A stretch of 14,984 nucleotides of DNA, taken from positions 1-14,984 of the forward strand of contig JAGCBE010000126.1 of the NCBI GenBank assembly GCA_017652345.1, written 5' to 3'. Of the stretch, positions 1,632-14,984 are shown in pieces. Below the pieces are notes generated by a model. That model was not told the origin of the DNA. It was given only the letters and a program-made list of their open reading frames with translations, and did not search any database. Both the position numbers and the translations under genes were made by a program. Each line of letters begins with the position of its first letter. The stretch's first letter is position 1. The DNA comes from Methanobrevibacter sp. GTDB taxonomy: Archaea > Methanobacteriota > Methanobacteria > Methanobacteriales > Methanobacteriaceae.

Positions 1632-1895
1632 TTAATAAGCATTTAACCAATCTTTAAGTAATTCATATTCTTTTTCAGTTAAATACATACTATCATCATT
1701 AAAGATTGAATTATAAAATTCTCTTGGTTGAGACTTCTTCAAAATGTAATATTTTAAATTATCTATTTGCACTTTTTTCTTATCTAATATATTTAATATT
1801 TCTTCCATATCATAAAGAAAATCTATTGCTTCTGCTTTTTCTTTATCAGAATGTTCTTCATAAAATAAAATGTCTAATGCTTCTTTACTTGCCAT
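1632..1895 (-). CDS. Small acidic phage protein, unknown function (related to the gene at 2451-2750)
   Basis: An 87-aa protein of unknown function, rich in D, E and K, and mostly helical by eye. The C-terminus, LTEKEYELLKDWLNAY, resembles the end of the 99-aa protein at 2451-2750 (LTQDEFDLIKEWLEK). Both also have an I-L-rich helix followed by a short strand region and a Y-N or F-Y-N stretch, so the two look like diverged copies. The start ATG at 1895 has a weak AAAGGA site 11 bases upstream. If the TGA of the previous gene (1966-1968) were read as an amino acid, that gene would end at 1885 and overlap this start by 11 bases, the usual spacing in this operon. It sits 21 bases before the ATPase gene. 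Confidence 0.7.
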   Translation of the reverse strand: MASKEALDILFYEEHSDKEKAEAIDFLYDMEEILNILDKKKVQIDNLKYYILKKSQPREFYNSIFNDDSMYLTEKEYELLKDWLNAY

Positions 1896-1965
1896 TGCCT
1901 AACATTCCTTTCAAAACTTTTCTTCTAACCTCTATTGTCTTTTCGCCATTTAAGATTTTACATAT

Positions 1966-2454
1966 TCATTCAGGGCGGATAGAGATTAAAACATATTTTT
2001 CACCTGTATTTTTACCATAGCAATACATCATATTTTGTGGGGCATTTTCTATGTGATAAAATACATTTTGTTTTGATTTACCACAATAATTAAATAATTC
2101 TCTTGGCTTATCAAAAATATTTAAGTTTTTAATGTGTATTGCATAACCGACTTTCTCACCATTAACTTTACAACCTAAATAATTTTCAATTTCAAATTGT
2201 GTTAAACAACTTTTGCTTGATATATTATCTATGGTTTCAGTATAAAATATTGGCTCATATCCTACTCCATTATTTAACTTTTCACTACATATCTCTTCTA
2301 CCTTAAAATCACATTCAGCTACTATTTTGCCGTTAAAAATAAATCTTTCTTTTTCTTCTTCTAAAATACCTAGATTATTTGTAGCCATATAACCTTTAAA
2401 TGCTTCTTTTACTAGATATGGCTTTGTTTTAGTGCAATATAATAATAATTTCAT
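1966..2454 (-). CDS. Phage PUA/ASCH-like protein, apparently truncated by an in-frame TGA
   Basis: About 162 aa from the ATG at 2454, which overlaps the previous stop as ATGA and has AAGGA 12 bases upstream. An in-frame ATG at 2466 has its binding site too close. The protein resembles a family common in phages and prophages of Firmicutes: an N-terminal MKLLLYCTKTKPYL strand, then NGKIVAECDF, then GYAIHIKNLNIFDKPREL, ending ISIRPE. As remembered, members continue with a Trp and then a stretch like CKILNGEKTIEVRKK, the ASCH-type RNA-binding signature. Here the codon after ISIRPE is TGA, and the same frame continues to a TAA at 1885-1887 with ICKILNGEKTIEVRRK and KVLKGML. So the last 26 residues are either lost by nonsense mutation or reached by readthrough. 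Function in phage biology is unknown. The family call rests on memory of motifs, not on a search. Confidence 0.65.
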   Translation of the reverse strand: MKLLLYCTKTKPYLVKEAFKGYMATNNLGILEEEKERFIFNGKIVAECDFKVEEICSEKLNNGVGYEPIFYTETIDNISSKSCLTQFEIENYLGCKVNGEKVGYAIHIKNLNIFDKPRELFNYCGKSKQNVFYHIENAPQNMMYCYGKNTGEKYVLISIRPE

Positions 2455-2750
2455 TTTTCTAACCATTCCTTAATTAAATCAAATTCATCTTGTGTTAATT
2501 CTTCTCTCCACCAATAATCTTTTTCTGCTCTAACTTTAACATTGTATGCCTCAACATTAACACCAGCCCAAACAACTAATTTAACATCTATTTGTTTTTC
2601 TACAATTAGTTTTAATATCTTATCTTGCTTTTCTTTTTCTTCTAATTCTTTTTTAATACTTTCTAATGTTTCTTTATCTATGGTCGCTTTATCTTTACCA
2701 TAATATTCACAATCTATTATTACATTTTCTAAAAGTTCTTTATTTGTCAT
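2451..2750 (-). CDS. Small phage protein, unknown function (related to the gene at 1632-1895)
   Basis: A 99-aa protein with no recognised enzymatic motif. Residues 20-47 are a charged helix rich in K and E. A hydrophobic region (KLVVWAGVNVEAYN) follows, then a C-terminal helix, LTQDEFDLIKEWLEK, which resembles the end of the 87-aa protein nearby. The start ATG at 2750 overlaps the end of the preceding gene by 11 bases and follows a GGTGAG binding site. The stop TGA overlaps the ATG of the PUA/ASCH-like gene (ATGA), a hallmark of coupled translation that argues for TGA being a true stop in this genome. Confidence 0.7.
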   Translation of the reverse strand: MTNKELLENVIIDCEYYGKDKATIDKETLESIKKELEEKEKQDKILKLIVEKQIDVKLVVWAGVNVEAYNVKVRAEKDYWWREELTQDEFDLIKEWLEK

Positions 2751-2955: not shown

Positions 2956-3632
2956 TATTTATTCTCCTTTCTATAAATACCAAGTTTTTCTTTTCCTTCT
3001 AATATTGCTTTTAACACATCATTTTCAGCCATTAATTGAGGACTATTTGATACACCTTGTCTTATCTTTTGTTTATTATCTCTTATTTTCCATTCTTCAT
3101 AATAAACTGTCTCATACCCGACTGATATTCCACTCTTTGGGGATATCTCTTCAATAATAACGACATCTCTTCCAGTCTTTGGGTCAGTGTATCTTAAATA
3201 ATTTCTTTTAGGATCATCAGATTTTAATATTGTAGCGTTGGATGAATCTATCTTTTCTTTCCAACCTATTTTTTTCTTAAATTCTCTAAAAGCGTCTTTG
3301 TCCATTTCTTTTAATTGAGACATTCTACTTTCAAAAATACGTTCTTCTTTTGAAGTAACAAGAGTAGTTCTTTGAACCTCGTTAATTGCTTGTCTAACAG
3401 TTAAACCCTTCTTTTTCATTAAAGTTTTAACCTCATTTTTAAAAATAGTTTTCTTTACTTTACTATCTCCAAAACTTTCTATATGTTCATCCAGGAAAGC
3501 TTTGTTATTATTATATACAGCGTCAATGTATCGGTCAGTTGATTTATACAAGCTTTGTTTTCTTTTAGCTTGAAGTGTTCCCTTACCACCAACAGTTGAA
3601 CGTTGTCCAAGTGTATATTTTCTACGTTTCAT
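2955..3632 (-). CDS. Candidate terminal protein (protein primer for DNA replication)
   Basis: A 225-aa, strongly basic protein. Its first 35 residues carry many K and R and several Y, S and T, a plausible DNA-binding tail. Helices rich in K and E follow (about 35-130), then a C-terminal part with strand-like segments (GRDVVIIEEI, VGYETVYYEEW). In phi29-type phages the terminal protein is 230-270 aa, basic, hydroxyl-primed on Ser, Thr or Tyr, and encoded next to the polymerase. Size, charge and position all fit, and this is the only gene here that does. The ATG at 3632 overlaps the polymerase stop as ATGA, with AGGAGG within the polymerase's last codons, so the two are probably translated in a coupled way. 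No signature motif was identified, and it could be another DNA-binding protein. Confidence 0.5.
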   Translation of the reverse strand: MKRRKYTLGQRSTVGGKGTLQAKRKQSLYKSTDRYIDAVYNNNKAFLDEHIESFGDSKVKKTIFKNEVKTLMKKKGLTVRQAINEVQRTTLVTSKEERIFESRMSQLKEMDKDAFREFKKKIGWKEKIDSSNATILKSDDPKRNYLRYTDPKTGRDVVIIEEISPKSGISVGYETVYYEEWKIRDNKQKIRQGVSNSPQLMAENDVLKAILEGKEKLGIYRKENK

Positions 3633-4702
3633 TTTTTATTCCTCCTAATTTGTATTTTATCATAATCAAAATAAAACTCGTTCATATCAAAAGAAGGTGG
3701 AGTATCATATAAGATATTAAAAGGTCTCTTATTTATCTTTTCAAATTCTTTGAACCAATTTTTTACAACTCCTCTATATGTTGGCTTTTCATCATTCCAT
3801 TGATAATTAAAACCAATATAGCTGAACCTTCCATGATGTGCAACATGAAATTGTCCAATTGCGTCACCAAGTTCTAAATCTTTTCTTTCTTTTTTACTAA
3901 CAATACAATCTGTATTACAATACAATGTGTCATCATCAATTAATGATATAATTTTATTAGTGCAACGATTAACAATTGTATTTCTTATAAATGGGTTAGT
4001 TCTTTGCATATATCCAACAGCAAAATTAATAATTTGTTTAGCCTTCATTGACTGGTCTTTATCTCCATACTTTTTTATACCAAAGTATTTATTTACAAAT
4101 CTTTTAAAAGGTGATTCCATTAAAGGGAAAATGATTTTAGCGTAACTATCAAAAGTTATAGATCCATCTAAAAGAAAACCAATTTCTCCTTCTTTTACAA
4201 CACTATTATATCTAGGTTTTACGCTAGTATCTGGAATAGGCTGACACAAAGCCCAACCATAAGCTGAAGTCATATCATATTCATAACAATTATCATGTGT
4301 TTTTCCGCCTTCAGCTAAATTACTCCATAATAGAGGAACAGCGGAACATACAACCCAACTTATAGAACTTCTTTGTCCTATCATTGTTTTTTCTTTTTTT
4401 AAGAATTTATTGTCTGACATATTAGGAACTTTATAATAGTGACATAAAGTAGTGTATGCTTGAAGTCCAGTTGTTTTTAGTATATTCTCTTCTCCATCTA
4501 AGCGTGTATTATAAGTCACAGTTGAATCGGCTGAACGATAAGTTAGATATACGTTAGTCCTATTAACTTCAATATTAGCTTCAAGATAACTAGCTCCATT
4601 CTCTCTTGGACCATAGACAATATTTCTATATTTCTTGACATATAGAAGATGTTTATTAAATTCGTTGACATTGATAAAAACAATTTTCTTTCCTCTATAC
4701 AT
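3629..4702 (-). CDS. Short B-family DNA polymerase, protein-primed type
   Basis: From the ATG at 4702 the protein is 357 aa. A GTG at 4711 in the same frame is possible, but a GAGGTG site upstream fits the ATG better. The three B-family polymerase motifs are visible: motif A, YEYDMTSAYGWAL, at about 140-152 (catalytic D143); motif B, KQIINFAVGYM, at about 222-232 (K222, N226, G230); and motif C, YCNTDCIV, at about 261-268 (D265). The usual first Asp of the DTD in motif C is replaced by Asn. phi29 polymerase is about 570 aa and begins with a 3'-5' exonuclease domain; here only about 140 residues precede motif A and no exonuclease motif is evident. The thumb after motif C is also short. The gene sits between a DnaD-like gene and the terminal-protein candidate. 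Polymerase identity is well supported, and proofreading is probably absent. Confidence 0.8.
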   Translation of the reverse strand: MYRGKKIVFINVNEFNKHLLYVKKYRNIVYGPRENGASYLEANIEVNRTNVYLTYRSADSTVTYNTRLDGEENILKTTGLQAYTTLCHYYKVPNMSDNKFLKKEKTMIGQRSSISWVVCSAVPLLWSNLAEGGKTHDNCYEYDMTSAYGWALCQPIPDTSVKPRYNSVVKEGEIGFLLDGSITFDSYAKIIFPLMESPFKRFVNKYFGIKKYGDKDQSMKAKQIINFAVGYMQRTNPFIRNTIVNRCTNKIISLIDDDTLYCNTDCIVSKKERKDLELGDAIGQFHVAHHGRFSYIGFNYQWNDEKPTYRGVVKNWFKEFEKINKRPFNILYDTPPSFDMNEFYFDYDKIQIRRNKK

Positions 4703-4713
4703 CAATAACACCT

Positions 4714-14019: not shown

Positions 14020-14922
14020 ATGGCAGTAAAAATCGGTGATAAAATATATAGAAATGAACAAGAACAAGTTTATCAAAACATGAAGGATATTGAAGAATTA
14101 AAAAGTAAAATTTTAGAAAGTTATTATTGTATTGGAGAATTAAATACAGCTAGTATTGCTGTAGCTAGAAACTTAACAAATGTTCCAGAAAATGTTGAAA
14201 CTGGATGGCTTATTGATACTGTAGGAAACTTATTTAAAATCACTGGATCAGATGAAAACGGATTATTAATTCAATTTTACTCTTCAATTAGAGGACCTCA
14301 AGGAGAAGCTGGTTCTGAAGGTTCTACTGGTCCTACTGGTCCAGCTGGTTATTCAATTAGATATACAAGCGAAGATTTTGTTCCTGGAACAAGAACGTAT
14401 ACAAAGTCATATATTCAGCCTTCATATCAATTAAAATCTCATGACTGGATAGTATTTAAAAATGGATATGTTGCTTTGATTTCAACAATAGGTGATTCAA
14501 CAATCAATATTGCAGAAGATAGTGAAATCGAACTTGATATCAGTGGTGGTAAGAGTTATAGCCATAATATCCAAATTTATTCACGCAGCACAACCCAAGC
14601 TAGAAGATTTAGATTTAGAATTACAATTATAAACAAAAGCGATGTAGCTTTTACTATTGATTCTTTATTTAATTATATTACAGATAAAACTTTATTTATT
14701 CAAGCGTGTGGTAAATATTATGATAGCACAGCACAATACAATGATACATATTTAATATATGGCTTGACTTATAAAGACTCAACAAATTTAGATATGCAAA
14801 CAATAAAAATCGGAACGTCAGCAGGGTTAGATTCAACAATAGTAAGGACAAATATAAGTATTCAACCTGCTGATTCAAACGCTGGTTCTTATGATTTGAC
14901 AGATGAAGTAAGAGAAATTTAG
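14020..14922 (+). CDS. Tail fibre / receptor-binding protein with short collagen-like segment
   Basis: A 300-aa protein in three parts. Residues 1-90 form a short helical start (MAVKIGDKIY and a K/E/Q-rich helix) and a small strand domain, probably the virion attachment end. Residues 92-109 are six G-X-Y triplets (GPQ GEA GSE GST GPT GPA), a collagen-like trimerising stalk common in phage fibres. Residues 110-300 are strand-rich (GYSIRYTSEDFVPGTRTYTK and later IYSRSTTQARRFRFRI) and resemble the C-terminal heads of receptor-binding proteins from gut phages of Firmicutes. It is the last gene of the rightward operon, 3 bases before the right repeat, with a strong AAGGAGG site. Receptor binding is inferred from architecture. 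Confidence 0.65.
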   Translation: MAVKIGDKIYRNEQEQVYQNMKDIEELKSKILESYYCIGELNTASIAVARNLTNVPENVETGWLIDTVGNLFKITGSDENGLLIQFYSSIRGPQGEAGSEGSTGPTGPAGYSIRYTSEDFVPGTRTYTKSYIQPSYQLKSHDWIVFKNGYVALISTIGDSTINIAEDSEIELDISGGKSYSHNIQIYSRSTTQARRFRFRITIINKSDVAFTIDSLFNYITDKTLFIQACGKYYDSTAQYNDTYLIYGLTYKDSTNLDMQTIKIGTSAGLDSTIVRTNISIQPADSNAGSYDLTDEVREI

Positions 14923-14925
14923 TAT

Positions 14926-14984
14926 TCACAATAATTATCTATCACAGATTAGATCCACACACATTGTGTGGGTCTTTTCTTTAC
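14926..14984 (-). repeat. Right inverted terminal repeat, 59 bp
   Basis: Exact reverse complement of 95-153. It ends precisely at the window edge, so the repeat could be longer in the real genome, and the terminal base is not proven. Together with the left copy it marks the window as an essentially end-to-end linear phage genome with a replication origin at each end. Confidence 0.93.
14952..14982 (+). terminator. Intrinsic terminator of the rightward operon, inside the right repeat
   Basis: 14952-14961 pairs with 14965-14974 (10 bp with one G-T wobble, 3-base loop), followed by TTTTCTTT. It begins 30 bases after the last structural gene and would stop transcription a few bases from the genome end. 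It is the mirror copy of the leftward terminator at 97-127. Confidence 0.8.

What the first reader, a model, noticed from the sequence alone, without database searches (positions are those of the whole stretch)
1885..1968. In-frame TGA at a conserved Trp position of a PUA/ASCH-like phage protein
The gene ends ISIRPE-TGA, but the same frame runs on for 26 more codons with ICKILNGEKTIEVRRK and KVLKGML to a TAA at 1885. As I remember the family, this is the normal continuation after a Trp. The extended gene would close the largest gap in the leftward operon (70 bases) and overlap the next start by 11 bases, like its neighbours. Explanations: recent nonsense mutation (TGG to TGA), programmed or leaky UGA readthrough, or a host that partly decodes UGA as Trp. 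Other genes use TGG for Trp, and two genes use TGA in ATGA overlaps, so a general code change is unlikely.
Basis: partly seen in the sequence, partly recalled or inferred. Interest (0 to 1): 0.7.

Follow-up and report, generated by a model that had tools for sequence, protein, structure and literature searches.

The report
Broken, circularly permuted phage ASCH gene
A small phage carries a gene cut short by a stop codon where its relatives have a conserved tryptophan, most likely an ordinary nonsense mutation, but the gene's family turns out to be an ASCH (RNA-binding-type) domain whose two ends have been swapped round during evolution.

Summary
After the TGA (1966-1968, minus strand) 26 codons stay open to a TAA. 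All 119 other listed homologues run on through that tail, 112 with Trp at the TGA column; none of 42 distinct related loci has a stop there. A general code change is very unlikely. Best explanation: a recent nonsense mutation in an accessory gene. Error or leaky UGA decoding cannot be excluded; no readthrough signal was found. The tail is the canonical N-terminal strand-helix-strand motif, moved to the C-terminus. A self-doubled canonical profile aligns in one piece (score 261.5, versus 158.3 and 107.8 apart; shuffled controls at most 20.1); PHROG 3136 matches in swapped stretches. The stop removes residues matching YqfB Lys21, Thr24 and Arg26, so the short product is probably dead. Three literature searches showed no report of a permuted ASCH.

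The parts
1966..2454 (-). Truncated permuted ASCH gene as written (162 aa from ATG 2454; the mechanical ORF starts at 2466, 166 aa), ending in TGA 1966-1968
   Evidence: (P0001, 162 aa, 100% identical)
1966..1968 (-). In-frame TGA at the column where 112 of 119 other listed homologues have Trp
   Evidence: codon in 42 distinct permuted relatives: 36 TGG, 6 other sense codons, 0 stops (canonical-order L048 set aside)
1885..1965 (-). 26 further open codons (ICKILNGEKTIEVRRKVLKGMLGNGK) and TAA; equivalent to the first helix and second strand of a canonical ASCH domain
   Evidence: (PF04266 positions 1-23 align to residues 161-183, E 0.11)
1632..1895 (-). Downstream gene, 87 aa, unknown; its ribosome-binding-like GAAAGGAATG lies inside the lost tail
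   Evidence: no Pfam or PHROG match at E<=0.001
2451..2750 (-). Upstream gene, 99 aa, ATGA overlap with the ASCH start; relatives lie in seven of the 74 fetched loci, and a weakly similar stretch precedes the ASCH domain in P0026
   Evidence: (28% identity, E 0.012)

Best explanation
A TGA nonsense codon has truncated an accessory gene of a small phi29-like phage. The gene codes for a circularly permuted ASCH (PUA-like) domain: the strand-helix-strand piece that starts a normal ASCH domain sits at the C-terminus here. Translation now ends at the start of that helix. The product lacks one seventh of the protein, including the GEKTIEVR motif, and is probably unfolded or inactive. Shown: the stop, the open tail, its conservation, and (by sequence profiles) the permutation. 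Inferred: that the stop is obeyed, that it is recent, that the gene is accessory and that the product is dead.
For: All 119 other listed homologues have the tail, 112 with Trp at the stop. No stop in 42 distinct permuted relatives. The tail is strand 157-163, helix 165-172 and strand 178-181, with block pLDDT 92-98 over residues 151-190. Canonical relatives keep invariant K21, E24 and R26 in the same motif; in YqfB, K21A, T24A and R26A are inactive (PMC6972931, passages). Trp and stop usage and polymerase lengths fit standard decoding. The window's tail is somewhat more diverged relative to its body than in most homologues (ratio 0.407, median 0.238; 15 of 119 others as high), which is compatible with a recent stop. 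The same 162-aa product is counted in 4 contigs (the window may be one of them), and no other listed homologue exceeds 66% BLASTP identity.
Against: The tail shows no clear decay, which readthrough would also explain. No reads were available. Only the best 120 of 1970 homologues could be seen, and the query included the tail, so weaker truncated homologues could be missed; the related loci were found by patterns two of which lie in or next to the tail, which has a similar effect. The four contigs may come from one sample.
Confidence: 0.66

Rival explanations
1. UGA is read through, leakily or on purpose, so that some full-length permuted ASCH is made; the stop sets the dose.
For: The tail is open and close to consensus: three departures up to residue 189, each shared by 5-11 homologues. 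The full frame would give the overlap with the next gene that neighbouring genes show.
Against: The next base is A; that this is not a leaky context is recalled. The RNA around the stop (1880-1990) folds no better than shuffles (z -0.14). No Rfam element at gathering score and no tRNA in the window. 119 of 119 other listed proteins run on, and 0 of 42 distinct related loci have a stop.
Confidence: 0.1
2. Sequencing or assembly error at one base.
For: One base is enough; no reads were available to check.
Against: The truncated protein is counted in 4 contigs, the longest 15,029 bases against 14,984 here, though they may share reads.
Confidence: 0.15
3. The truncated protein works: the tail is dispensable or the short form has a new role, for example as a competitor of full-length ASCH proteins.
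For: The body lies as close to the homologues as they lie to each other (mean distance 0.480, median of others 0.515), although the homologues were chosen by likeness to the window, which biases this.
Against: No other listed homologue ends there. The tail holds the longest run of nearly invariant columns and lies inside the predicted fold.
Confidence: 0.06
4. The host or phage decodes UGA as Trp generally (code 4 or a mixed code).
For: The TGA sits exactly at a Trp column.
Against: 61 Trp codons in the 21 genes are TGG (the genes were called with TGA as stop, so in-frame TGA is absent by construction). The polymerase ends in TGA; reading on would add 49 residues, but its 83 homologues are 277-390 aa, 29 of the best 30 being 355-367.
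Confidence: 0.03

Closest known systems
ASCH domain (Pfam PF04266), PUA-like superfamily
PHROG 3136 (phage family, unknown function)
   Same: Canonical phage ASCH proteins match it end to end (L062 residues 2-174 to profile 3-129).
   Different: Intact permuted proteins match in two stretches; the best one shown is the tail (P0004, profile 3-33; P0014, 2-33) or the body (window read through, 38-115). The truncated window protein matches with the body only (38-121).
YqfB ac4C amidohydrolase (E. coli)
   Different: The nucleophile position Thr24 is Glu here, so the same chemistry is not expected.
ZmASCH (5guq, 5gus), single-strand RNase by the title of its paper (seen in a reference list)
   Same: Closest solved sequence and fold to the canonical phage relatives.
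   Different: Not permuted; catalytic residues not compared.

Membership tests
ASCH (PF04266), permuted branch | Significant sequence match to the ASCH profile | tested here: inconclusive
   92 of 121 members match at E<=1, best 0.0004. The six scanned singly match only profile 1-24 with the C-terminal tail, all below the gathering score. The canonical relatives match in 14 of 14 at E<=0.01; of four scanned singly, one is above gathering.
ASCH (PF04266), permuted branch | All blocks of the domain present and alignable, in any order | tested here: met
   One alignment of 170 columns across the junction of the self-doubled canonical profile, score 261.5; 5 of 5 column-shuffled controls at most 20.1. 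PHROG 3136 in two stretches.
ASCH (PF04266), permuted branch | Canonical N-to-C order of elements | tested here: not met
   Motif C-terminal in 41 ORFs, N-terminal in 20 (plus 2 whose chosen start lay inside or after the motif), duplicates included, in 74 loci. So it is a permuted relative, not an ordinary member.
ASCH (PF04266), permuted branch | PUA-like barrel fold | tested here: inconclusive
YqfB-type amidohydrolase | Thr-Lys-Glu triad | tested here: not met
   The Thr24 position is Glu in 110 of 121 rows (window read through included, P0001 a gap; triad from PMC6972931). The column equivalence rests on motif spacing.
Programmed UGA readthrough gene | Stop conserved in relatives, or a downstream signal | tested here: not met
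   0 stops in 42 distinct loci; no unusual RNA structure in 1880-1990.
Genetic code 4 (TGA=Trp) | TGA used for Trp across genes | tested here: not met
   61 TGG in 21 genes; the polymerase's terminal TGA is a true end by the lengths of 83 homologues.

The most novel reading that the evidence does not exclude
Phages have a large unannotated branch of the ASCH superfamily that arose by natural circular permutation. The conserved strand-helix-GEKTIEVR segment that opens an ordinary ASCH domain is the last thing translated, so the ligand pocket is completed only by full translation, and nonsense codons like this one disarm it cleanly.
Probability: 0.85. Interest if true: 0.5.

Novelty: new variant of a known kind. 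Interest (0 to 1): 0.42.

Why it matters
The stop itself is a small point. The permutation matters more. The search gave 1970 hits, and none of the 120 listed carries a precomputed Pfam domain; 119 of those 120 have the C-terminal tail (the unlisted hits were not seen and may include ordinary ASCH proteins). The permutation explains the missing annotation, suggests a role (binding RNA or modified bases, by analogy with ASCH), and offers natural sister proteins in both orders for testing how circular permutation affects an RNA-binding fold.

Tried and rejected
General TGA=Trp code: rejected. Selenocysteine: thought unlikely because homologues have Trp, not Cys, at the column; no Rfam family at gathering score. 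Downstream reinitiation: the ATG overlapping the TGA opens only a three-codon frame (ATG AAT ATG TAA, read from the sequence). Sister phages at this codon: none found in IMG/VR by exact pattern, terminase, capsid or polymerase, nor among INPHARED phages, so population data are missing. Host genome: none held, so a tRNA-Trp(UCA) could not be sought. Profile search of A1 against PDB sequences: no match; Foldseek of the permuted model: nothing at E<=0.001, and in the VIA list ribosomal proteins rank above the one ASCH-like row. A fusion link to the downstream gene: not supported; to the upstream gene: weak. Literature: 'ASCH domain' + 'circular permutation' 0 papers; 'ASCH' + 'circularly permuted' 36 papers, of which I saw the 10 listed titles and abstract starts, none on ASCH domains; 'PUA domain' + 'circular permut' 4 papers, listing only, one followed by passages (CSP3 phage, a permuted genome, not a permuted domain). 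'permut' does not occur in the main texts of PMC6972931 and PMC7641849 (passages seen). Listings of ASCH-and-phage and readthrough papers were only skimmed. The founding ASCH paper (Iyer and others, cited) was not read.

Full report
What is there. On the minus strand the gene 1966-2454 ends ...ISIRPE-TGA. The same frame continues for 26 codons to a TAA at 1885-1887, which overlaps the next gene's ATG (1895) by 11 bases. The better start is the ATG at 2454 (MKLLLYC...), an ATGA overlap with the upstream gene; it gives P0001, the 162-aa product.

Homologues. A search with the read-through sequence found 1970 proteins among 2150 candidates, of which the best 120 are listed. One is the window's own truncated product, P0001, counted in 4 contigs (longest 15,029 bases). 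In the alignment (columns) all 119 others have letters after the stop column. At that column 112 of 119 have Trp, 3 Glu, 2 His, 1 Tyr and 1 Asp. At the DNA level, 43 distinct matches in fetched loci reach from the body to this column; one (L048) is a canonical-order protein and was set aside. Of the remaining 42, 36 have TGG, 6 have other sense codons and none has a stop (all rows, tail-only matches included, also without a stop). These loci were found with short patterns, two of which lie in or beside the tail, and the protein query included the tail, so broken relatives are somewhat less likely to be seen. The best identity of any other listed homologue is 70% in the alignment and 66% by BLASTP, so no close intact allele is visible. 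Close relatives of the phage do exist: a terminase cluster at 97% with 23 member sequences and a polymerase cluster at 99% with 22. Their ASCH regions could not be inspected.

Genetic code. The 21 genes hold 61 TGG codons and end in TGA three times. They were called with TGA as a stop, so the absence of TGA inside them is by construction; the independent test is the polymerase. It ends in TGA, and reading on would add 49 residues, while its 83 homologues are 277-390 aa and 29 of the best 30 are 355-367. TGA is therefore a real stop in this phage.

What the protein is. Pfam ASCH positions 1-23 align weakly with the C-terminal tail (residues 161-183, E 0.11), and 92 of 121 aligned members match ASCH at E<=1 (best 0.0004). 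In other fetched phage loci the same motif opens the protein: one search lists 22 such ORFs (two with a start chosen inside or after the motif) against 41 with the motif C-terminal, duplicates included. With a length and motif filter I kept 17 of the first kind, 14 of them distinct. All 14 match Pfam ASCH at E<=0.01. Profile comparison of the permuted family (120 rows, P0001 removed) with these 14 gives two local matches in swapped order, body 158.3 and tail 107.8. Against the self-doubled canonical profile it gives one continuous match of 170 columns, score 261.5, while five column-shuffled doubled controls give 11.6 to 20.1. Independently, PHROG 3136 matches the three canonical proteins scanned in one stretch over most of the profile. 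For the three permuted proteins two stretches pass; the best stretch shown is the tail (profile 2-33) in P0004 and P0014 and the body (profile 38-115) in the read-through window protein. The truncated window protein matches with the body only.

What the stop does. The TGA falls at residue 167, near the start of helix 165-172. It removes the rest of that helix and strand 178-181, with the motif GEKTIEVR. In YqfB, alanine at Lys21, Thr24 or Arg26 of the matching motif abolishes activity (PMC6972931, passages seen); the match rests on spacing and on L062 K21, E24 and R26 being invariant in the canonical set. The Lys and Arg are conserved here and the Thr24 position is Glu, so I expect binding or another chemistry rather than the YqfB reaction (inference). 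A product lacking this piece is unlikely to keep function (inference).

Mechanism. Most likely a recent nonsense mutation in an accessory gene (0.66). Readthrough (0.10) has no positive signal: the next base is A, the RNA fold is ordinary, there is no tRNA, and no relative seen has a stop there. Error (0.15) cannot be excluded without reads; the 4 contigs argue mildly against it. The tail-to-body divergence ratio of the window is 0.407 (median of others 0.238; 15 of 119 others as high). As the homologues were chosen by likeness to the window this is only a rough guide; it is compatible with a short period without selection and does not prove one.

Novelty. A nonsense codon in a phage gene is ordinary. 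The permuted ASCH branch did not appear in the searches named, which cover open-licence papers only; I have not read the founding ASCH paper. I therefore rate the whole a new variant of a known kind.

Noticed in passing
95-153 and 14926-14984: Perfect 59-base inverted repeat near both ends, as expected for a protein-primed linear phi29-like genome; the contig looks nearly complete.
   Followed up: partly
3629-4711: Type B DNA polymerase of only 360 aa, perhaps without an exonuclease domain (not tested); its 83 homologues are all 277-390 aa, several with PF03175 (only lengths up to 1.75 times the query were candidates), against about 575 aa for phi29 (recalled). No sequence match in the PDB.
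   Followed up: partly
546-1610: Packaging ATPase; most of the 120 listed homologues carry PF05894 and many sit on contigs of 13-15 kb, so this seems a common but unnamed group of small phages, absent from INPHARED by tblastn.
   Followed up: partly
L047:2965-3600: The ASCH opening motif (ISIRPEWVKKILNGGENRDI) joined to an unrelated-looking sequence, just upstream of a full canonical ASCH gene: a possible broken or chimeric copy.
   Followed up: no
2451-2750: Relatives of this 99-aa protein lie in seven of the 74 fetched loci, near permuted ASCH genes, and a weakly similar stretch precedes the ASCH domain in P0026.
   Followed up: partly
14020-14922: Tail-fibre-like protein with a short collagen-like stretch (PHROG 5073 and 30509).
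   Followed up: no
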